A stretch of 64,000 bases of DNA from Streptomyces sp. AM 2-1-1 (lineage in GTDB: Bacteria; Actinomycetota; Actinomycetes; Streptomycetales; Streptomycetaceae), in assembly GCF_029167645.1 (NCBI RefSeq), contig NZ_CP119147.1, positions 5,660,501 through 5,724,500 on the forward strand. Reading direction: 5' to 3'. Of the stretch, positions 47,736 through 61,755 are shown in pieces (position 1 is the stretch's first letter; each line of letters begins with the position of its first letter). The notes beneath the pieces were generated by a model. It made no database searches. It was given only the letters and a program-made list of their open reading frames with translations, and was not told where the DNA came from. A program made the position numbers and the translations under genes.

Positions 47736-48719
47736 ATGTCGAATCAGTCGGTGGCGGCGGGGATCGGACTCGCCCGCGTCATGGCGCACTGCGGGGGAGA
47801 CCCGGTCCGTGCGGTGGAGTCGCTGGTGGGAGCGGTAGCCTCGGCACCGTCCGCCCCGGAGCCGTACGCGGCCCTCGCCGAGCTGTGGCACGACCGGCGC
47901 CCGGAGCTGGAGAAGGGCCTGGAGGGGGCCGGGTCCCTGAGCGCCGTGCTGGCACAGTCGTACTTCTTCTTCCTGCGGGGGGAGATGGACGACGCGGTGA
48001 TGTCCCTGGGTTCGGTCACGGGCGCGCGGCCCGACGTCGCCTGGGGCGGCGCACCCTGGTTCGGCGATCCCGGCTTCCTCGGTGCGGTGAGCGCCGAGGC
48101 GCTGGCCGAGGCGTGCCTGCGCACCCTGGACCACGGCCCGGACCTGGACGGCGACGAGGCGCGGGAGCGGTTCGCGCCCTGGTTCCACGCCCTCGAGGTG
48201 GTGTCCACCCGCAGCCCCGTCCCGGAGTCGCTGGCCGCCATGGCCCGGCTGCCCCGTGCCTGCGGCCGCTACGATCTGGCCTTCGCCCTGTGCGACCGCG
48301 CCGACGCCGTCGAGCGGGTCATGTGGACAGCGGTGGCGCGAGCGGTGACCTGGCGCGCCACCGGCGACCTGGACCGGGCCGCGGCGGCCTTCGAGGACGC
48401 CCTGATCCTCGACCCCGCCAACTGGTCCCTCCACCTGGACCTGGCGGACCTACGAGCCGAGCAGGGCGACTTCGCCGCCGCCGTGAGCCTCGTCGGACAG
48501 GGCCTGGACCACGAACCCCACGAGCCCTCCCTGCGCGCGGCGTCCGCCGCGTACCGCGCACGTCTGACCGGTTCGTCCGACGAGCTGACGGCCCTGATCA
48601 CCCTGGCACCCCAACTCGTGGACACCACCTACCGGAACCTGCTGATCGACCACGCGTGCGCGGGGCCCGGTCTTCCGCCGGACCTCGTGGCCGGGGCCCG
48701 TCGTGTCCGCGCGGGCTGA
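47736..48719 (+). CDS. TPR-like protein of unknown function
   Basis: A 327-residue alpha-helical cytoplasmic protein. Helical pairs resembling tetratricopeptide repeats are visible, for example DLDRAAAAFEDALILDPANWSLHLDLADLRAEQGDFAAAVSLV near residues 215-255, and DPVRAVESLVGAVASAPSAPEPYAALAELW near 22-50. It has no catalytic motif. It lies just before the type VII secretion locus but points toward the mycosin gene, so membership is uncertain. ATG 47736 lacks an obvious ribosome site but is preceded by a GGATAT promoter-like patch. Confidence 0.8.
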   Translation: MSNQSVAAGIGLARVMAHCGGDPVRAVESLVGAVASAPSAPEPYAALAELWHDRRPELEKGLEGAGSLSAVLAQSYFFFLRGEMDDAVMSLGSVTGARPDVAWGGAPWFGDPGFLGAVSAEALAEACLRTLDHGPDLDGDEARERFAPWFHALEVVSTRSPVPESLAAMARLPRACGRYDLAFALCDRADAVERVMWTAVARAVTWRATGDLDRAAAAFEDALILDPANWSLHLDLADLRAEQGDFAAAVSLVGQGLDHEPHEPSLRAASAAYRARLTGSSDELTALITLAPQLVDTTYRNLLIDHACAGPGLPPDLVAGARRVRAG

Positions 48720-48813: not shown

Positions 48814-50040
48814 TCACTGCCCCGTGCCGGAACGCCATCCCCGCCGACGGGCCCGGGTCACCGTGAAGAGGGTGTACCCCAGGGCCGCCAGAGCCACCAC
48901 CACGCCGGCGGCCACGGCGACCGCGGTGTCGTGCGCACGGCTCGCCGGGGTCGGTGGCAGCACCACGGGCCGGACCGGTGCCACGGGGGCGGCGGGCGAC
49001 CAGGGGGCGGTGACCGCGGCCACCGGATCGACCGTGCCCGCGCCGACGAGCCCCGTTTCCACCGCCGGCATCCGGTAGGCGGACGCGACGATCCTGGCCG
49101 TGATCTCGGGCGCCTTCGCGTCGGGACGGGCGGCGGCCACGAGCGCCGCCGTCCCGGCCACGAAGCCCGTGGCCAGGTCCGCCCCGCTGCCGGTGACATG
49201 GCCGCCGCCGGGTCCCACGCTCATCACCGAACCGCCCGGCGCCGCGATGCCGGGGGCGGTGCGTGGGAGGACCGTCAGGTCGGGCGAGCCGCCCGGTACG
49301 ACCGCCGCGACGGCGAGCACCCCCGGCAGCGCGGCCGGGAAGGCGGCGGGCGCGGCCTTCTCCTCGGTCCCCGGGCTCGCCGGGGCCGCGTAGGCGGGTG
49401 CGACGACGACGCTGCCGGCCTTCCGGGCCGCCGCGACGGCCGAGGTCAGCGCGCCGCTGCCGCGCGGCAGGGCGAGGGGCACGGCGACGACCCGGGCGCC
49501 GCCTGCCACGGCGGCCCGGATTCCGGCCGCCAGCCGGTCCGCCGGTACCACGCCGTCGTCGCCGGTGACCCGGATGGCCAGGACCCGCGCCCCGGGCGCC
49601 ACCCCGACGAAGCCCGTCCCCGCGCGGGGGGCTGCGGCGATCAGGCCCGCGACGAACGTCCCGTGCCCGGCGCAGTCCTCGCCGCCGCCCCGGTCCGTCC
49701 CGCCGTCCAGATCCGGGCCCGCCTGGACCCGGCCCGCGAGGGCGGGGGAACGGGTGGCGTCCACCCCGGTGTCCACCACGGCGACCAGGACTCCCTCGCC
49801 CCGGGTGTGGGCCCAGGCACGGGGGTAGCCGAGGTAACCCTGCGGCCAGGGGGTGCTCTCCACCTTCCGGCGGGACGGCTGCACGCAGCCGCCGCCCTCG
49901 GGCGTCAGCGAACTCACCACGGGCAGGGGCTCGTCGCCCGCGCCGTCCGCGAGGGCGGGGGCCGCCCCCGCCGCGGCAAGGAGGAGGCCGGCGCCGAGGA
50001 GGACCGCGTGTGCCGTCAGGCGGAGTCGCAGGCTCAGCAC
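48814..50040 (-). CDS. mycP: Mycosin-like S8 protein, predicted catalytically dead
   Basis: A 408-residue type VII secretion mycosin homologue: signal peptide about 1-31, subtilase-like domain about 55-345, Pro-rich linker, C-terminal transmembrane helix about 366-388 and basic tail. Asp90 (VVDTGVD) and His126 (AGHGTFVAG) of the triad are present. At the nucleophile position, where the family has GTSFAAP, this protein reads [11 protein letters not shown], so the Ser is Asp288. The oxyanion Asn region (usually AAGN) reads [10 protein letters not shown]. It is therefore probably a pseudoprotease keeping a structural role, as mycosins also stabilise the secretion complex. GTG 50040 overlaps the upstream stop (GTGCTGA), indicating coupling to the EccA-like gene. 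Confidence 0.88.
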
Positions 50041-53000
50041 ACGAGGTCCTCGGGGAGCAGGGTGGTGAGGTCTTCCACCGACGCCTCCGGCATCGCGCTG
50101 AGGCGTCCCGCCTGACGTGTCATCATGCGCTCCAGCACGGTGCGCGCGTACCGTGCGTTGCCGAAGGCGGGCCCGCGCTCCACCGTGCCGAAGTGGTCGC
50201 GCAGCCGCTCCAGCGTCCCCGGTGGGCAGGTGTACTTCTCCCGTGCGCACATGCCCACGACGATGTCGACGAGTTCTCCGGCGTCGTACGAGGTGAAGGG
50301 CACCGTCCGGCCGAAGCGCGAGGCCAGGCCGGGGTTGGAGGACAGGAAGCGGTCCATCTCCGGGCCGTAGCCGGCGACCACCACCGCCGTGTCCTTGCGG
50401 TGGTCCTCCATGAGTTTCAGCAGGGTGTCCACCGCCTCCCGGCCGAAGTCCGAGCCACCGGCCCCCTCGGGCGTCAGGGTGTACGCCTCGTCGACGAACA
50501 GCACCCCGCCGCGCGCCCGTCCGAAAGCCTCCGCGGTGAGCCGCGCGGTGTGGCCGACGTACCGTCCGACCAGGTCGGCGCGGGCGACCTCCACCAACTG
50601 CCCCCGCGGCAGTACGTCGAGCGCGCCGAGCAGTTCCCCGTACAGGCGGGCCACCGAGGTCTTGCCCGTGCCGGGAGGCCCGGTGAACACCAGGTGGTGG
50701 CCGATCGCCGGGGCGGGCAGTCCGTTCTCCCGGCGCCTGCGGGCAGTGGTCAGAAGGTTCACCAGGTCCTGGACCTCACTCTTCACGCCGGCCAGCCCGG
50801 TCAGTGCGGACAGCCGGCCCAGGGCGGCCTCCAGGCGTCCGGCGTCGCCGCCGGGCCCACCGCAGCCCCCGGCGGCGGCCGTCGCCGCCTCCCCGACGTC
50901 CGAGGGCAGCAACAGCGACAGCTCCTCCTCCGAGACCGTCTCGTTCCCCGCGAGCCGGAGTGCTTGCCGGTCCACCATCTCCTCGAAGGTCCGCCTCGCC
51001 TCCCGGGCGTTGCCGAAGGACTCGTCACGCGTCATCCGGGCGAAGTGCGGCACGAGGGCGCGCCGGGTGTCCTCCGCGAGCGTCAGCCGGCTGCGCGCAC
51101 AGAGCGCTTCGACGATCGTCACCAACTCGTCCACCTCGTAGTTCTCGAACTCCACGGTCCGCCCGAACCGGGAGCCGAGGCCCGGGTTGGACTCCAGGAA
51201 CGACCGCATCCGGCCCGAGTAGCCCGCGACGATCACCACCACGTCGTCGCGGTGGTCCTCCATGAGTTTCACCAGGGTGTCGATGGCCTCCTGGCCGAAG
51301 TCGGCCCCGCCCGAGCCGGCCTCGGCGGACAGGGTGTATGCCTCGTCGATGAACAGGACCCCGCCCAGGGCCCGTTCGAACAGCTTCGTCGTCCGCTGCG
51401 CCGTGCTGCCCACGTACTCGCCCACCAGGTCCGCGCGGGCGGCCTCCACCAGATGGCCCGAGCGCAGCACGCCGAGCCCTGCGAGGATCGAGGCGTACAG
51501 CCGGGCGACAGTCGTCTTGCCCGTACCGGGGGGGCCCGCGAAGACCAGGTGGCGGACGGTGGCGGGGACGGGGAGTCCCATCTCGCGCCGTCGCCGTGCC
51601 AGCTTGCTCAGGTTCACCAGGGTCGCGACCTGCTCCTTGACCTGCCGGAGCCCCACGAGCTCGTCGAGCACGGCGAGGGACCTGGCGGCAGCGTCCTGCG
51701 AAGGCGCCTCGTCCCGGCCGGCACCGTCGCCGCGTGCGCCGAGCACGTCGGGCTCGCCGTTCTCCCTGCTGTCCAGGTCGTCGGCGGACACCCGCCCGTC
51801 GGCGGCGGTCTGCCGCACACCGGCGGCACGGTTGCCCGTGATCGCGCACCGGGTGACGCGGACGGGCCTCTCGCTCGCCACCCGCAGGCCGTCGCCTCCG
51901 GAGCCGCCGAGGTCGCAGTCGGTCAGTTGAGCGGCCGCCCCCGGGCCGATCAGCACGCCGTGGGTCCGGCTTCCGCTCACCCGGCTGCCGACGGCGACCA
52001 GTTCGGCGGGACCTTCCACCGAGATGCCCTCCGACCCGGCGTTGTCGACCGTCACCCCGGTCAGCGTGACGGCCGCCTCGCCGGTCACCCGCAGACCCGG
52101 CGCGGAGCTGTCGCGGAGCACCGTGCCCTGGAGCGTCGGGCGGGACGCCTCAACCACCGCTCCGCAGCCGCCCGCCCCGGTGACGGTGCCGTCCTCGACG
52201 GTGCCCCGCGCGCCGTCGCGGAAGAACAGTCCGTGGCCGCCGCTGAGGACGACGTCCACCCCGCGCAGTGAGGGGTCGGCGCCGGCGACCACGACGCCGT
52301 GCCCGGCGGGCCGCTCCACGGTGACGGCTTCCAGCCGGGGTGCGGCCCCGCCCTCGACGACGGCGCCCTCGGACCGCCCTCCGGCGATCGTGGTACGGAC
52401 CAGAGCGGGCGCGGAGTCGTCCCGTACGAGCAGCCCTGCGGCGGTCGAGCCGGTGACCCGGCAGTCGGTGAACGTACCGCGCGAGCGGTCGGTGGCGGCG
52501 ATGCCGTGGCCCCCCGAGCCGGCCGCCAGGAACCGGTCCACCCGGGGGTCGGCGGCACCGGAGAGCAGCATGCCGTGGGTGGTGCTGCGCTGCGCGACGC
52601 AGTCGTCGAGCACGGGGCCCGCGCCGGAGGAGAGGTGGAAGCCGATGACGCACTCCTCGGTGCGGACCTCGCTCAGCCGGGTCGAGCACCGCTCCTCCAG
52701 GGCGACGCCCGGTTTGAGGGTACGGACGACGGTGAGCCGTTCGACCGAGCCGGCGGCCCGGTCGCCGGCCAGCAGGCCGTTGCCGCGCGCGTCGCGCACG
52801 GTGCAGCCGCGCACGGTGGTCACCGCGCTCTCGCCCAGCACCAGCCCGGAGCTTCCCAGGTGTTCGAAGAGGCAGTCCTCGACGACGCTGCGACGGGGCG
52901 AGAGATCCACGAGTCCGGCACCGCGGCCGTTGGTGACCACGCAGTCCCGCATCGCGAGGGAACCGGTGTCGCGGGCGAGCAGCGCGGTCCAGCCGTTGCC

Positions 53001-53312
53001 GTGGACGGTGCAGTTCTCCAGTTCGGCCTGGCCACGCGGCACGTCGACGACGGGGGCGTCCTCGTCCGCGCCGCGCAGCACCAGCCCGGACAGTTTCACC
53101 GCTTCCGCGAGGACCTGGACCGCGCTGCCGTCCCGGGGGGCTATCTCGGGGGGCGAGGCCGGATCGTCGGCGATCAGGGTGAGCATCTTGGTGATGGAGA
53201 GGCTTTCGTCGTAGCGGCCGGGCCGCACCCGCACCACGCTGCCGGGGCGGGCGGCGCCGAGGGCCGCCGCCAGGGTGGTCCCGGGCGTGGCGACGAGGGT
53301 CTGGCGGGCCAT
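50034..53312 (-). CDS. Beta-helix/double AAA fusion at the EccA position
   Basis: A 1092-residue cytoplasmic protein. Residues about 1-510 form a long right-handed parallel beta-helix of roughly 22-residue turns (repeats such as [41 protein letters not shown]). An acidic linker follows (510-545), then two CbxX/CfxQ-type AAA modules. Walker A GPPGTGKT is at about 593-600 and 878-885; Walker B LFIDEAY and LFVDEAY at about 653 and 938. The AAA modules are the EccA/SpoVK type that escorts WXG100 substrates in type VII secretion. Only 65 nt separate it from eccC, and it overlaps mycP. The helix could bind substrate or wall polymers; that is inference. Confidence 0.9.
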
Positions 53313-53377: not shown

Positions 53378-56300
53378 TCAGTCGCGCAGCGCGGTCTGGA
53401 TCTGGGTGGTACGCCGTCGGGTGATGTAGAGCCCGCGGCCCGGCGGCAGCGCACGGGGCCGCGTCCCGGGCACCACCTGTCCTTCGGAGGGCGGGCAGGA
53501 GAGCATCAGGACGGGGGTGTTGGCCTCCACCAGGCGGCGGAGCAGAGGGTCGGAGCCAACCGCGCGGCCCGCGCCGTTGGCGCCGCGCGCCACGATCAGG
53601 TGGAATCCGGTCTCGGTTCCCTGGGTGAGGAGGTCGTGGAGCGGGGCGAAGGGGTCGTTGGCGCCGAAGCCGCCGCCGGAGACGAGCTCATGGTCGTCGA
53701 CCACCACGAAGAGACGTGGCCCCGTCCACCAGTCCCGCAGGGCCAGACGCCCGGGAGCGATGTCCGCGCCGGGCACCCTCTCGCGCAGGGCGCGGGCCGC
53801 TCCGTCGACCATCCTGCGCAGCGGGTCGGGTCCCACGGCGTAGCCCAGCCGGTGCGCGTCGGGGACGGTCCCGGCCATGCCACGCCGGAAGTCGACGAGG
53901 AGCACCCGGGCCTCGTCGGGCGTGTAGCGGGCGGTGACCGCCTCGGCGACGTGGGCCAGCAGGTTCGTCTTGCCCGACTCCACGTCTCCGATCACCACGA
54001 GGTGCGGGTGCGCCTCGAAGTCGTGCCGGAACACCCCGAGGCCCAGGTCCTCCAGGCCCAGCGGAACGCGCAGGTCGCCGTCGGCCGCCGGGAGCCGCGA
54101 CGCGGCGAGGGTGGCCGGCAGCATCCGTACGGCCGGGGCGGGTTCGCCGTCCCAGCCGGCCGCCACCTGGCGTACCAGCGCGGCGACCCCGGTGGGGAGC
54201 GTGTCCGCCGACGGGTCGCCGTCGGTCCGGGGCAGCGCGGTGAGGAAGTGGCTGCGGTCCGCGTCGAGTCCCCGCCCGGGGACCGCCGGGACGGTTCCCG
54301 CGGCGCGCATGTTGACCATGGAGTCCACCGGGTCGCCGAGCCGGAGTTCGAACCGGGTGCCGAGCTGGTCGCGGAGCGCGGCTCCGATCTCCGACCAGCG
54401 GCCGGAGGCGACGATCAGGTGGACTCCGAAGTTGAGGCCGCGTGAGGCGATCATCCCGAAGGTCGGAACCAGGTCCATGAAGTCCTGGCGCACCGTGTTC
54501 CAGCCGTCGACCACGAGGAACACGTCGCCGTGCCGTTCCGCCGGGAACTCGCCCGCCGCACGCCGGGCACGGAAGTCCGCCATCGACTCGACGCCGTGGG
54601 CGGCGAAGAGCCGCTCGCGGTGGGCCACGACGGCGGTGACCTCGGCGACGGTACGGGTCATCCGTTCGGGGTCCAGTCTGCCGGTGACGCCCCCCACGTG
54701 CGGGAGCCCGGCCAGTGCGCCGAGCGTGCCCCCGCCGAAGTCGAGGCAGTAGAACTGCACGTCCTTCGGGGTGTGAGTGAGTGCCAGCGCGCAGATCAGG
54801 GTGCGTACCAGCGTCGACTTGCCCGACTGCGGGCCCCCCGCGATGCCGATGTGGCCGCCCGCGCCGGAGAGGTCGGCGGTCAGCTCCTCGCGCCGCTGGT
54901 CGAACGGCCGGTCCACGACGCCCACGGGCACGCGCAGGTACGGGGTGGTCTCGCCGGGCGGCGGCAACAGGAGGTCCAGGGTGGGAGGGTCACCCAGGGG
55001 CGGCAGCCAGACCTGGTGGGCGGGTGGTCCGCAACCCTCCAGTTTCTCCACGGCGACGTCCAGCAGGCTGCGCGCGGGGACCTCCTCCTCGTCGGGCTCC
55101 GTCACGGGCCCGGGGTCCTCGGAGGATCCCGACAGGGCGCGCGGCGGGACCCAGCCCGCCTCGAAGGGGACGACCTGCCCGGCCACGACCGCGCGGCGCA
55201 TGGCGCCGGGACGGGCGGGTCGGTAGTCCCCGGAGACGTACGCCGCCTTGAAGCGGGTGAGGGTGCCGACGTCGTTCTTGAGAAGCCCGCTGCCGGGGAG
55301 CGGGGGGAGTTCGTACGCGTCGGGTACTCCGAGGACGCCGCGGCTCTCCATCGCGGAGAACGTCCGCAGGCCGATCCGGTACGAGAGGTGCGACTCCAAC
55401 TGCTGGCTGCGGCCCTCGTCGAGTCGCTGGGAGGCCAGCAGCAGGTGGACGGAGAGCGACCGGCCCAGGCGGCCGATCATGACGAAGAGGTCGAGGAACT
55501 CCCGGTGGGCGGCGAGCAGTTCGCTGAACTCGTCCACCACCACCAGCAGGGTCGGCAGCGGGTCGAGCGGAGCACCGCCCGCCCTGGCCTCCTCATAGGC
55601 GCGTACGGACGTGAAGTTGCCCGCTCTGCGCAGGAGTTCCTGGCGGCGGACGAGCTCTCCGTGCAGGGCGTCCTGCATCCGTTCGACGAGCGCGGCCTCG
55701 TCGGCCAGGTTGGTGATGACCGCCGAGGTGTGCGGCAGCCGGTCCAGCCCGAGGAAGGTGGCCCCGCCCTTGAAGTCGGTCAGGACGAAGTTCAGCGTCT
55801 CGCTGCTGTGCGTGAGGGCCAGCGCGAGCACGAGGGTGCGCAACAGCTCGGACTTGCCGGAACCGGTGGCGCCCACCAGCATGCCGTGCGGGCCCATGCC
55901 GCCCTGGGCCGACTCCTTGAGGTCCAGCATCAGATGGGAGCCGTCCGCGGCGATGCCGAGTGGCACCCGCAGCCGTTCTCCCTCGGTGCGCGGTCGGTGC
56001 AGCTGCTCCGGCCGCGCCGCGGCGAGGTCGCGGATGCCCAGCAGGTCGGTGAGTTCGCGGTCCTCCTGGAGCGGTTGCTCGGATCGGGCGGCCGCGCCGA
56101 GCCGGAAGCGGGCCAGGCGCATGGCGAGTGCGCGGGCCGCGCCGGCGCCGAGCGTGTCCGGCCGGCCGATCCTGGTCTCGGCCGGTCCGCCTCCGGGGCC
56201 GGGGCCGAGCAGCACGAGATCCTCGGGGGTGACGCGCAGCCGCAGGGTCCCCCGGTCGTCGGCGGTCGCCGCGAGGGTGCCCCGTACGTCGACGACGGTC

Positions 56301-57346
56301 GTGTTGCGGTACCCGTCCCCGGCCAGCCGGGCGCCGGGCGGCACCGTGGAGAGGTCCAGCACGACCACGGTGAACGGCTCGTCGCGGTCGGGCGCCGCAC
56401 CGGCCAGGAACGGCCCCCGCGCCGTGAACTCCTCGCCGAGCAGCGGTTCCAGTTCGGAGACGGACTGGGCGGCCAGCCGGGCCGGTCCCACCCCGTCGGT
56501 GTCCGTCGGGTGCTGGGTGTGCGGGAGCCACTTGGTCCACGCCCAGGCGTCCCAGCCCTCCCCGTCCGCGAGGACCACGATGTTCAGCTCGTCCGGCGCG
56601 TGGAGGGCAGCCAGTTGCGCCACCACCGCCCGTGCCGTCGCCCGTGCCGAGCCGACCGCGACGGACCCGGCGCCGGGCTCGCCCGCCGGGGCGAGCAGCA
56701 CCCGCGCGAAGGAACGGAGCCGTACGGAGACGGGCTGCCCGTCCACCGTCGCGTACGTGTGGATGAAACGCCTCAGCGCATGGGCGCACAGCGGTTCGAG
56801 GTCCTCGACCGGGCGCGTCGCCAGCGGCGTCAGGGTGAGGGCGAGAGGCTGCTCGCCGGTGGCGAACCGCACCTCGGCGAAGTCCTCGTGCGACGCCCGG
56901 CGCTCCCACAGACGGCCGCTGCGGGTCACCGACCACAGCGCGTCCGGCTCCGGATGGTGCCATGCCTGGGCCCGGCGCTGCTGGTCGACGACGGAGCGGA
57001 TGCGGCGCCGACTGGTCGCGAGGTACCGGAGGTAGTCGCGGCGTTCGCCGCGCAGGGCCCGCTTGCGTTCCCCCGCCGCGCGGAAGAACTGGGCGACGAG
57101 CATGACGACCGCGGACAGCGTCATCATGCCGACGGCCACCCACATGAGCACGCCGTTGCCCTCGCCCGGCCGGAGAAAGACCAGCACCATGCCCAGGGAA
57201 CTCAGGGCCATCGGCAGGTAGGTGACCACGCCGCCCATGGCGCTCTGTGGCTCGGGCAGCGCCGGCGGCTCCTGGAGGGCCAGTTCGCCCTGCGGCATCT
57301 GCGGACCCACCCGGCGCGGAGGGCGACGGAACGTGACGGTGGTCAA
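53378..57346 (-). CDS. eccC: Type VII secretion FtsK/SpoIIIE ATPase EccC
   Basis: A 1322-residue motor of the ESX/type VII translocon. Two transmembrane helices lie at about 38-58 and 65-88. Three P-loop domains follow: Walker A GATGSGKS at about 492 with Walker [12 protein letters not shown] near 600; GGPQSGKS at about 837 with FLVVDGWN near 943; and GDVESGKT at about 1120 with [10 protein letters not shown] near 1212. Only the first has the full acidic Walker B (DE); the second and third have DG and DD, as is common when only domain 1 is the active motor. Single-chain EccC suggests an actinobacterial rather than split EccCa/Cb layout. It is divergent from eccD. Confidence 0.94.
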
Positions 57347-57526
57347 ACCGGCTCCCGGTTGGTGCGGCGGCCATTCCCCGTCACGAGGACGTCAGCAGCC
57401 CTCCAAGGGCGGCGAAGAAGGCTGTTTGACGGGTGATCATACTGTTGGCCGGGAGTCACGATAGTGTGCCCCCGTTTCCCGAGTCGGACCGCCGCCGAAT
57501 TCACGGCGGGAGTGAATCGAGCTGCC
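57347..57526. promoter_or_regulatory. Divergent promoter region of the type VII locus
   Basis: This 180-nt gap between eccC and eccD is AT-richer around 57430-57470. On the minus strand TATGAT (57441-57436) is a strong -10-like hexamer for eccC, though no good -35 was found at 16-18 nt. No plus-strand pair was assigned. Confidence 0.35.
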
Positions 57527-58915
57527 GTGAGCGACAAGACAGGCGAACTCTGTCGAATATCCGTCAGAGCTCCTTCCCGGGCCTTCGAATTGGGGATACC
57601 GTCCGATGTTCCGCTCGCCGATCTGCTTCCCGTGCTCGTCGAGTACGCGGGAGCCGAACCTCACGAGCAGGAACCCGGCCCCGGAGGCTGGTCCGTCCAG
57701 CGGCTGGGGGGCGCGCCTCTCGACGAGGAGGGCACCGCCGCGTCCTTCGGCCTCGTGGACGGGGAGACGCTGTACCTGAGGCCACGCGGTGAGACCCTTC
57801 CCGAGGTGGCGTTCGACGACCTCGTCGAAGGGATCGGCGAGACCCTGCGCGCCCGCGACGACACCTGGCGGCCCGCGCTGACCCGGCGGCTCCTGCTGGG
57901 CTTGAGCACCGCAGCCCTGCTGGCCGCCCTGGTGGTCCTCGTCCTGCCCGGCGCCGACGCCTGGCGGGCGGGCACGGCCGGCGCACTGGCCGTGCTCCTG
58001 ATCGCCGGCTCCCTCACGGCTTCCCGGGCAGTCGGCGACTCCGGCGCGGGGGCGGTCCTGGGCATGCTGGCCGTACCGCATCTCGCCCTGGCCGGAGCGC
58101 TGCTCCCGCAGGCGGGGGCGGGCGAGGACGGTCTGGGACCCCGCCTCCTGGCGGGCGGGGCCGCCGCGGCGGGTGCCGCCGTCGTCGCGCTGGCCGCCGT
58201 GGGAGCGTTCGTCCCGCTGTTCCTCGGGGCGTTCACCGTCGCGCTGTTCGCGGCGCTCGCCGGCGGCGTCACCGCCGCCGGCCTTCCCCCCGCCCAGGCC
58301 GCCGGCTGGCTGGCGGTCCTGACGGTCGTTTCCGCCGTGTTCGTGCCCGGCCTGGCCTTCCGCTTCGCCGGAATGCGGCTGCCTCCGCTGCCCACGGGGG
58401 CGGACGACCTCCAGGAAGGCATCGACCCCTTCCCCGCGGAGCGGGTCCGGGCGCGCGCCGCGCTCGCCGACACGTACCTCACCAGCATCTACGCCGCGCT
58501 TGGGGTGGTGGCGATGGGCAGCCAGACGGCACTGCTGACGGCCGCGGGGTCGGACGAGCGGACGGGACCCGCCCTCACCGTCGCCCTCAGCCTGCTGCTG
58601 CTCCTGCACGTGCGGCTCGTCGGCGCGCTCTGGCACCGGCTGGCGCTCGCCGTTCCCGGCGCGTACGGCCTGACCGCCACGGCGGTCGTCATCGCCGCGG
58701 GCGCGCCCCTGCCGGGTCGGCTGGAGGCGGTGGCGGTCCTGCTGGTGGCGGGCGCGGCGGCGGCCGTCGCCGCGTGGACGGTACCCGGTCGCCGGCTCGT
58801 CCCGTACTGGGGCAGGGCCGCGGACGTCCTCCACCTGGTGACGGCCCTGGCTCTGCTGCCGCTGGCCGCGCTGCTGTCCGGGGTCTTCGGGGCGCTGCGC
58901 GGGATCAGGGGCTGA
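57527..58915 (+). CDS. eccD: Type VII secretion integral membrane protein EccD
   Basis: A 462-residue channel component. Residues about 1-85 form the cytoplasmic ubiquitin-like YukD domain (LCRISVRAPSRAFELGIPSD, PLADLLPVLVEYAG). About 11 transmembrane helices follow from residue 118 to the end, with an extended cytoplasmic loop around PAERVRARAALADTYL. GTG 57527 is chosen because it matches the usual EccD start just before the CRxxVRAP block; GTG 57512 and an ATG at 57464 are less likely. It is the first gene of the plus-strand type VII operon and is followed 7 nt later by eccB. Confidence 0.93.
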   Translation: MSDKTGELCRISVRAPSRAFELGIPSDVPLADLLPVLVEYAGAEPHEQEPGPGGWSVQRLGGAPLDEEGTAASFGLVDGETLYLRPRGETLPEVAFDDLVEGIGETLRARDDTWRPALTRRLLLGLSTAALLAALVVLVLPGADAWRAGTAGALAVLLIAGSLTASRAVGDSGAGAVLGMLAVPHLALAGALLPQAGAGEDGLGPRLLAGGAAAAGAAVVALAAVGAFVPLFLGAFTVALFAALAGGVTAAGLPPAQAAGWLAVLTVVSAVFVPGLAFRFAGMRLPPLPTGADDLQEGIDPFPAERVRARAALADTYLTSIYAALGVVAMGSQTALLTAAGSDERTGPALTVALSLLLLLHVRLVGALWHRLALAVPGAYGLTATAVVIAAGAPLPGRLEAVAVLLVAGAAAAVAAWTVPGRRLVPYWGRAADVLHLVTALALLPLAALLSGVFGALRGIRG

Positions 58916-61009: not shown

Positions 61010-61303
61010 ATGGCGGACGTCGAACTGAAGAAGGCCGCGGCCAACGCCGTGATCGACGACATGGGGCAGGCCAACGCCGCCATGACGGCGGCGCTCCAGG
61101 ACATGCTGGACCGCATCCGTCCGCTCCAGCAGTCGTTCTCCGGTGACTCCGCGCAGGCGTGGGCCGAGTTCCAGGGCACGGTGAACGCGGCGATCAACAA
61201 GATGAACACGACCTTCACCCAGGGCACGCAGGCCCTCACCACCATGGTGGACCTCCAGATCCAGGCCGACCTGGCCGGCGGCCGCCAGTTGTCGGCGCAG
61301 TGA
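61010..61303 (+). CDS. WXG100-like small protein, second of pair
   Basis: A 97-residue helix-turn-helix protein of ESAT-6/WXG100 size. The turn reads QQSFSGDSAQAW, with Phe replacing the usual Trp of WxG but the following Gly and Ala/Ser pattern kept. The C-terminal tail QADLAGGRQLSAQ lacks an obvious YxxxD/E export signal. ATG 61010 has GAGGAGAG upstream, an excellent ribosome site. It pairs with the 60537 gene and overlaps the next gene by 4 nt (GTGA). Confidence 0.88.
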   Translation: MADVELKKAAANAVIDDMGQANAAMTAALQDMLDRIRPLQQSFSGDSAQAWAEFQGTVNAAINKMNTTFTQGTQALTTMVDLQIQADLAGGRQLSAQ

Positions 61304-61755
61304 CGGCCGACGAGAAGACCGGCGACGGCACGGGTACGTACAAGGTCGACCAGGCGGCGATCGACCGGACGGTCGCCCAGCTCGGCGGCGTCATCGAGGC
61401 GCTGATGAAGGAGCCTTCGCGGCTGACCCTGCAGACCTTCGCCGGTAAGGGCGGCAACGGCGTCTACCCGCACATCTTCACCGGTTCGGGCAAGGGCGCG
61501 GTGAGCGCCACGGCCCTGCGGGACACGTTCGAGGAGTTCGCGGTCGCCATGGAGACACAGCTGACGTCGATGGAGACCAAGCTCGGCGGCCTCGTCAAGG
61601 ACCTCAAGCTCGCCCACCAGTTCCAGCGGGAAGGCGAGGAAGGTGCGGCGCTGACCGCAGCCGAGATGATGGCCGATCTCCGGGACGCCCTGGCGGCTTT
61701 CGGCGGATCGACGAGCACGACGGCAACCACCCCGGCCGGGGCCACTACCGCCTAG
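61300..61755 (+). CDS. Helical type VII-associated protein
   Basis: A 151-residue mostly helical protein starting at GTG 61300, overlapping the WXG100 stop, so translationally coupled. Two helical regions (AAIDRTVAQLGGVIEALMKE and LRDTFEEFAVAMETQLTSME with LGGLVKDLKLAHQF) flank a Gly-rich segment containing GKGGNGVYPHIFTGSGKG. There is no membrane segment. It is not a family I can name. Its coupling suggests a chaperone or third WXG-like partner specific to this secretion locus. Confidence 0.8.
   Translation: MTADEKTGDGTGTYKVDQAAIDRTVAQLGGVIEALMKEPSRLTLQTFAGKGGNGVYPHIFTGSGKGAVSATALRDTFEEFAVAMETQLTSMETKLGGLVKDLKLAHQFQREGEEGAALTAAEMMADLRDALAAFGGSTSTTATTPAGATTA

What the first reader, a model, noticed from the sequence alone, without database searches (positions are those of the whole stretch)
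50034..53312. Type VII locus ATPase fused to a 500-residue beta-helix
The protein at the EccA position carries an N-terminal right-handed parallel beta-helix of roughly 20 turns and two CbxX-type AAA modules, instead of the usual TPR-like N-domain plus a single AAA module. This is seen directly from the repeats and two complete Walker A/B sets. The beta-helix may be a substrate or scaffold binding arm, so this secretion system could recognise cargo differently from mycobacterial ESX. I cannot tell how widespread the fusion already is among Streptomyces annotations.
Basis: partly seen in the sequence, partly recalled or inferred. Interest (0 to 1): 0.75.

Follow-up and report, generated by a model that had tools for sequence, protein, structure and literature searches.

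The report
Beta-helix-armed tandem ATPase of type VII secretion
A soil bacterium's protein-export gene cluster carries, where mycobacteria have the helper ATPase EccA, a common but apparently undescribed ATPase with two motor modules and a long beta-helix arm, and the arm is probably how this branch of the export machinery handles its cargo.

Summary
ORF 50034-53312(-), 1092 aa, has a right-handed beta-helix at residues ~5-516 (23-residue period; AlphaFold pLDDT mostly 95-98), then two intact CbxX-type AAA+ modules. It lies between EccC and mycosin in a type VII locus without EccE.

The fusion is not rare: nearly all of the 120 listed homologs share it, mostly named 'right-handed parallel beta-helix repeat-containing protein' or 'AAA family ATPase'. 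New here is a tight link. In 121 genomes of the genus, the same 34 hold the fusion and an EccC at least 59% identical to this one; 32 of 36 fusions lie within 8 kb of it. These EccC genes form one clade. In a sister clade the second AAA has lost its Walker motifs (3 of 3 held). Beta-helix and EccC distances correlate (r = 0.92, 65 loci).

It is not shown to be EccA by descent: no EccA N-domain, under the EccA cut-off, AAA relationship unresolved. Best reading: the dedicated cytosolic remodelling ATPase of a second actinobacterial T7SS lineage. The beta-helix as docking arm and D2 as puller are inferences. One held paper reports an eccE-less second copy; ten searches found no description of this protein.

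The parts
50034..53312 (-). beta-helix / tandem AAA+ protein, 1092 aa (the finding)
51765..53300 (-). right-handed parallel beta-helix, residues 5-516, about 22 turns of 23 residues
   Evidence: Pfam PF13229, period 23, AF2 model
50871..51698 (-). first AAA+ module D1 (residues 539-814) with AAA_lid_6
   Evidence: pore-loop aromatic in only 5 of 77 rows, present here
50037..50849 (-). second AAA+ module D2 (residues 822-1092) with AAA_lid_6
   Evidence: pore-loop aromatic in 77 of 77 rows
53378..57346 (-). EccC (FtsK/SpoIIIE-type T7SS ATPase); start may lie at 57298
   Evidence: TIGR03924 and TIGR03925 well over cut-off
48814..50040 (-). MycP mycosin (subtilase), overlaps the fusion's stop by 7 nt if the GTG at 50040 is its start; a longer ORF starts at 50250
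   Evidence: PF00082 over cut-off; TIGR03921 212 bits, under its cut-off of 278.75
57464..58915 (+). EccD (YukD ubiquitin-like plus membrane domain)
   Evidence: PF19053, PF08817; TIGR03920
58923..60422 (+). EccB
   Evidence: PF05108, TIGR03919
60537..60923 (+). small protein of the T7SS cluster, WXG100-like position, no family match of weight
   Evidence: homologs at the same place in L030, L031, L036, L043
61010..61303 (+). WXG100-type protein (weak, under the Pfam and NCBIfam cut-offs)
   Evidence: PF06013 23.6 bits against cut-off 27.3; TIGR03930 28.4 against 44.85
61300..61755 (+). 151-aa protein of the cluster
   Evidence: no family; homolog in L030
61803..63758 (+). 651-aa protein, faint AAWKG-family resemblance (under cut-off)
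   Evidence: NF038047 26.3 bits against cut-off 70

Best explanation
It is the dedicated cytosolic AAA+ remodelling ATPase of a second, EccE-less type VII secretion lineage found in Streptomyces and other actinobacteria, doing the job that EccA is thought to do in mycobacteria. SHOWN here by sequence or model: beta-helix plus two intact AAA+ modules, no hydrophobic stretch, near one-to-one linkage and co-variation with one EccC clade, D2 with an aromatic pore loop in all aligned rows while D1 usually has none. INFERRED: the protein forms a two-tier hexamer; the beta-helices stand out as arms of about 10 nm (from a recalled rise of about 0.48 nm a turn) that dock WXG100-type or large substrates, or the EccC/EccD base; D2 pulls or unfolds the bound partner to hand it to EccC and free any chaperone; D1 assembles and regulates the ring.
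For: Linkage: the same 34 of 121 genomes of the genus hold the fusion and an EccC of at least 59% identity; 36 fusions, 36 such EccC, 32 of 36 fusions within 8 kb. EccC of the tandem-fusion loci is one clade (18 rows, 98*), and with the dead-D2 sister type (5 rows) another (100*). Distances: beta-helix r = 0.924, D1 0.933, D2 0.835 against EccC, with EccB as yardstick 0.969, 65 of 96 loci (those with all three genes complete), permutation maximum 0.185. Beta-helix period and model. Catalytic residues 77 of 77, pore-loop aromatic 5 of 77 in D1 against 77 of 77 in D2. Closest solved sequences are EccA1 and CbbX; the best VIA structure match of each AAA module is CbbX. Loci carry EccB, EccC, EccD, MycP and WXG100 genes. 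EccA is hypothesised to strip EspG from PPE proteins (PMC10597459, passages read).
Against: No experiment. Beta-helix plus single-AAA relatives also occur with no T7SS gene recognised nearby (L027, L165, L166), so the architecture is not exclusive to T7SS; and the EccC beside one single-AAA relative (L161) lies outside the fusion EccC clade. The r values are confounded by species phylogeny. In G000 the second fusion copy is far from its EccC, and L102's genome has a fusion but no EccC above 47% at E 1e-150. pTM is 0.54, so the domains' mutual placement, and any hexamer, is not predicted. Mycobacterial EccA5 is only partly needed for secretion.
Confidence: 0.62

Rival explanations
1. It is simply EccA whose TPR N-domain was replaced by a beta-helix and whose AAA module was duplicated; same function, ordinary domain swap.
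For: Same kind of locus; AAA modules 43-51% identical to EccA-type AAA at L139/L141; EccA1 AAA is the top solved-sequence match. In a reduced tree the beta-helix modules and EccA fall on one side, though at 58/0.
Against: A fuller tree puts CbbX and Bacillota modules nearer the beta-helix clade than EccA is, 85/78. TIGR03922 stays under its cut-off even with two modules counted. A separate PF21545-AAA protein exists elsewhere in this genome (C1:6204707).
Confidence: 0.25
2. A general-purpose SpoVK/CbbX-like chaperone or scaffold that merely travels with this locus and serves another pathway.
For: The one NCBIfam model over its cut-off among the 25 shown is stage V sporulation protein K; single-AAA beta-helix relatives lie away from T7SS; some fusions are tens of kb from EccC or on other contigs.
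Against: Co-occurrence 34 of 34 with one EccC lineage, 32 of 36 within 8 kb, and shared branching; in G367 each of two fusions sits within 9 kb of its own EccC.
Confidence: 0.15
3. The beta-helix is not a cargo arm but a spacer, oligomerisation or envelope-anchoring element, or a carbohydrate-binding module.
Against: The N-terminal 200 residues are the most conserved part of the helix (entropy 1.1-1.3 bits against 1.5-1.9 further on), and W108, P201 and E206 are invariant in the 77 aligned rows and kept in 3 of 3 dead-D2 proteins, though the tandem protein of G325 lacks W108: compatible with a specific partner site in these two lineages. No hydrophobic stretch for anchoring (maximum 19-residue hydropathy 1.17).
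Confidence: 0.3

Closest known systems
EccA of mycobacterial ESX (TIGR03922; N-domain PF21545)
   Same: cytosolic CbxX-type AAA+ encoded in a T7SSa locus
   Different: beta-helix in place of the TPR-type N-domain, two AAA modules, score under the EccA cut-off
CbbX, red-type Rubisco activase (PDB 3syl, 3syk, 3zuh)
   Different: CbbX (307-328 aa in the three plasmid copies fetched) has no N-terminal solenoid, one module, and lies beside Rubisco genes
SpoVK (TIGR02881)
   Same: highest family score, over cut-off
   Different: score adds two modules; sporulation role not testable; different locus
p97/Cdc48 tandem AAA ATPases
   Same: N-domain followed by two AAA modules, aligned over about 545-1092
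   Different: AAA_lid_6 lid, beta-helix N-domain, rmsd 6.7-12 across both modules
Second Streptomyces T7SS copy without eccE (PMC8401907, passages read)
   Same: same kind of locus, eccE missing
   Different: neither EccA nor a beta-helix is mentioned there (0 occurrences of both terms in the main text); that it is the same lineage is my inference

Membership tests
EccA (type VII secretion AAA-ATPase) | TPR-type EccA N-terminal domain (PF21545) | tested here: not met
   not among Pfam matches at E <= 0.01; beta-helix instead
EccA (type VII secretion AAA-ATPase) | score over TIGR03922 cut-off | tested here: not met
   461.2 bits against 466.65, with two modules counted
EccA (type VII secretion AAA-ATPase) | single CbxX-type AAA module | tested here: not met
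   two complete modules
EccA (type VII secretion AAA-ATPase) | AAA module descends from the EccA clade | tested here: inconclusive
   85/78 against, 58/0 for
EccA (type VII secretion AAA-ATPase) | encoded in a T7SSa locus | tested here: met
   EccB, EccC, EccD, MycP neighbours
EccA (type VII secretion AAA-ATPase) | needed for or helps T7SS secretion | not testable with these tools
   no experiment
T7SSa (ESX-like) locus | EccB, EccC, EccD, MycP and WXG100 proteins | tested here: met
   in the window the mycosin and WXG100 models stay under their cut-offs (PF00082 is over its own), while a WXG100 of a sister locus is over it (L034:18114-18422)
T7SSa (ESX-like) locus | EccE | tested here: not met
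   only EccE over cut-off in the genome is at C1:1793134, by another EccC; some ESX-4 also lack it (PMC11217815 passage)
T7SSa (ESX-like) locus | PE/PPE substrates and EspG chaperone (ESX-1,2,3,5 type) | tested here: inconclusive
   no such Pfam match in the 10 proteins scanned; no genome-wide search
SpoVK (TIGR02881) | score over cut-off | tested here: met
   504.8 against 422.95 bits, two stretches
CbbX (TIGR02880) | score over cut-off | tested here: not met
   425.6 against 459.25 bits
Right-handed parallel beta-helix | repeat family match and stacked short strands | tested here: met
   PF13229 171 bits; AF2 model

The most novel reading that the evidence does not exclude
Beta-helix-armed AAA+ proteins are a separately recruited class of T7SS motor, used by several actinobacterial T7SS lineages: tandem active modules in one, active plus dead module in its sister, single module beside more divergent EccC types. 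In the tandem lineage and its sister the beta-helix is the substrate receptor that takes the place of both the EccA TPR domain and the EspG-type chaperone, so they select large WXG100-linked cargo by a mechanism not known from mycobacteria.
Probability: 0.3. Interest if true: 0.72.

Novelty: new variant of a known kind. Interest (0 to 1): 0.52.

Why it matters
What EccA does is still unsettled; a 2024 survey of T7SS variants calls its function unknown (PMC11217815 passage). A lineage that uses a differently built ATPase, in a locus without EccE and beside a sister lineage whose second module is naturally dead, gives a natural contrast for asking what the N-domain binds and whether ATP hydrolysis in each ring matters. 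It also gives a sequence handle (beta-helix-AAA plus an EccC about 55% or more identical to this one) for annotating a likely T7SS component that databases now name mostly by its repeat.

Tried and rejected
Rejected: that the fusion is rare or specific to this genome. That it replaced a TPR-type EccA missing from the genome: a PF21545-AAA protein sits at C1:6204707, away from every EccC found. That the beta-helix circulates alone or on other partners: a search with residues 1-520 gave 9 proteins, all fragments or beta-helix plus CbxX-type AAA except one kinase fusion (P0128); it could see only proteins of roughly 290-910 aa among 8000 scored candidates. Placing the AAA modules inside or outside EccA: two trees disagree weakly. 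Phylum-wide sampling (396 genomes) found the fusion in 4, all of the genus; at most two candidates a genome were scored, so it says little about other families, where the fusion does occur. G325, of another family, was missed at E 1e-200 and found at a laxer limit, 39 kb from its EccC. Foldseek search of the model could not be run; VIA-align's list was filled by AAA chains, so beta-helix neighbours beyond 8egr were barely tested. The second structure job was not used. The 59% EccC limit was set after seeing the gap between 59% and 53%; I gave all 36 listed EccC of 59% or more and four lower ones; matches past the end's list were not seen.
Full report

The locus. Beside it on the same strand are EccC (53378-57346) and mycosin (48814-50040); on the other strand run EccD, EccB, two small WXG100-position proteins, and further cluster genes. 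A YbaB-like gene runs across the window's end, and past it lies a 2789-aa protein with an N-terminal WXG100_2 domain (L023). The only EccE over cut-off in the genome lies by another EccC at C1:1.78-1.79 Mb. A plasmid locus annotated in the public record has the same gene set in another order; there the gene is called 'right-handed parallel beta-helix repeat-containing protein', among genes named eccCa, eccD, eccB and WXG100 (L182).

How common it is. A protein search returned 3890 matches at E <= 0.001 among 8000 scored candidates. Of the 120 listed, 118 are 1,091-1,152 aa with the same domains; P0004 is partial and P0028 (1502 aa) has no beta-helix listed. Named sources include Streptomyces, Kitasatospora, Amycolatopsis, Lentzea and Actinomadura. 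(That this genome is a Streptomyces is inferred from these names; the tools give it no name.)

The link with one T7SS lineage. In 121 genomes of the genus the fusion (E <= 1e-200) is in 34 and an EccC of at least 59% identity to the window's is in the same 34, with 36 of each; 32 of the 36 fusions are within 8 kb of such an EccC, one is 34 kb away, two are on other contigs than their EccC, and one, in this genome, is displaced. Inspected loci of other EccC lineages in the genus (L029, L125, L136) show no match to the beta-helix or AAA modules. The two commonest orders are fusion-mycP-eccC-eccD-eccB (28) and a form with divergent mycP (32); the window's order, with eccC upstream of the fusion on the same strand and mycP after it, occurs with all five genes in 2. 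Of 8 long-flank loci without EccC, 7 genomes have an EccC of 60% or more elsewhere; one (L102) does not. With the two repeats dropped and the window added, 92 loci gave mycP in 86, EccC 71, EccD 69, EccB 67, limited by stretch and contig ends.

Trees. The EccC tree (42 rows, quick method, SH-aLRT only) puts the 18 loci of tandem fusions in one clade (98*), five loci of a second type in another (100*), and the two together (100*); in three of these 23 (L026, L137, L152) the ATPase gene lies elsewhere in the genome or on another contig. The two TPR-EccA loci, the loci without a recognised AAA and one locus with a single-AAA beta-helix protein (L161) fall outside. In the second type the protein is beta-helix, D1, and a D2 remnant without a Walker A or B match in 3 of 3 proteins whose D2 region is held (G104, G023, G112, the last cut at its end by the contig). 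The AAA tree shows D1 and D2 as two lineages, with the second type's module inside the D1 lineage; I read this as one tandem duplication, then loss of activity in the sister type's D2. All beta-helix AAA modules form one group (100/99 without CbbX, 91/96, 93/94.9). Whether that group is sister to EccA is unresolved. Over 65 of 96 loci (those with complete fusion, EccC and EccB), pairwise distances of beta-helix, D1 and D2 follow EccC at r 0.924, 0.933 and 0.835, against 0.969 for EccB with EccC; the best of 500 permutations was 0.185 or lower in each case. Species descent contributes to these values. In G367 the two fusions each lie within 9 kb of their own EccC (62% with 73%, 51% with 60%), which is harder to explain by species descent.

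Other beta-helix AAA proteins. Single-AAA versions sit near divergent EccC genes in L161 and L167, and near an EccC-like gene with a 2878-aa neighbour in this genome (L024, L123). Another single-AAA type of 811-829 aa (L027, L165, L166) has no T7SS gene recognised in the stretch held. So the architecture is older than, or wider than, the T7SS use.

Mechanism. Mycobacterial EccA is hypothesised to separate EspG from PPE substrates, and deleting eccA5 lowers but does not stop secretion (PMC10597459, passages). By analogy this protein would be a ring-forming remodeller whose beta-helix arms bind partner proteins. A weak hint of a partner site is the higher conservation of the first 200 residues of the helix and of W108, P201 and E206, kept in the tandem and dead-D2 types examined except W108 in G325. 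Against making it a mark of T7SS use, the single-AAA types lack these residues whether or not a T7SS is near. Ring form, partner and direction of pulling are inference.

What is in print. Ten searches of the held open-access library were used. No paper listed describes, by its title and the start of its abstract, a beta-helix EccA-like ATPase in T7SS; four returned nothing, and the four papers holding both 'parallel beta-helix' and 'type VII secretion' are by title on other subjects. I looked inside four: the 2024 survey of T7SS variants (PMC11217815; abstract and passages), which has no occurrence of Streptomyces in its main text, says EccA goes with all ESX except ESX-4 and calls its function unknown; a Streptomyces genome paper (PMC8401907; passages), which reports a second T7SS copy lacking eccE in several strains and mentions neither EccA nor a beta-helix; the ESX-5 reconstitution paper (PMC10597459; passages); and a survey of polymorphic toxins (PMC3482391; passages), with no occurrence of EccA or beta-helix in the part held. 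Subscription papers, supplements and preprints were not searched.

Verdict. Observation confirmed; interpretation partly supported. A widespread, poorly named protein is tied here to one T7SS lineage: a new variant of a known kind, of moderate to good interest.

Noticed in passing
G000:C1:163977-167219 (L028) and C1:6970268-6974200 (L026): The genome's second fusion and the T7SS it would belong to are at opposite ends of the chromosome contig, each about 160-170 kb from an end; a rearrangement seems to have separated fusion and mycP.
   Followed up: partly
L024:3302-20000 and L123 (G000:C1:4.158-4.176 Mb): A divergent EccC-like 1530-aa ATPase, two WXG100-size genes, a 2878-aa protein without family match and a beta-helix plus single AAA protein in one cluster: a possible further T7SS type.
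   Followed up: partly
L168 (G000:C1:6204707-6205375): A TPR-type EccA-like protein (PF21545 plus AAA, 708 aa), not near any EccC found in this genome; its AAA groups with those of four other genomes (L170-L173), of which L173 was also shown to carry PF21545.
   Followed up: partly
L157, L158, L164 (G104, G023, G112): Sister T7SS type whose beta-helix ATPase has a dead second AAA module. In L158 it adjoins a 1035-aa protein without Pfam match; L163 has a 1089-aa gene at the same place (similarity not tested).
   Followed up: partly
L023:1085-9454, just past the window: 2789-aa protein with an N-terminal WXG100_2 domain, a likely large substrate of this T7SS; the rest has no family match.
   Followed up: partly
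L034:3141-4337 and L044:167-3100: A family with a ricin-B-lectin domain lies by the fusion in 27 of 92 loci; families of an NB-ARC/TPR regulator and a sigma-70-type factor in 20 of 92 each (one member of each scanned).
   Followed up: no
L037 and L132 (G005, G054): The fusion gene is split into two frames within the beta-helix; real decay or sequencing error not decided.
   Followed up: no
window 47736-48719: TPR protein next to mycP; not a best match of any gene in the 19 loci printed, so probably not part of the conserved cluster.
   Followed up: partly
P0128: A 694-aa protein with a kinase domain and a related beta-helix.
   Followed up: no
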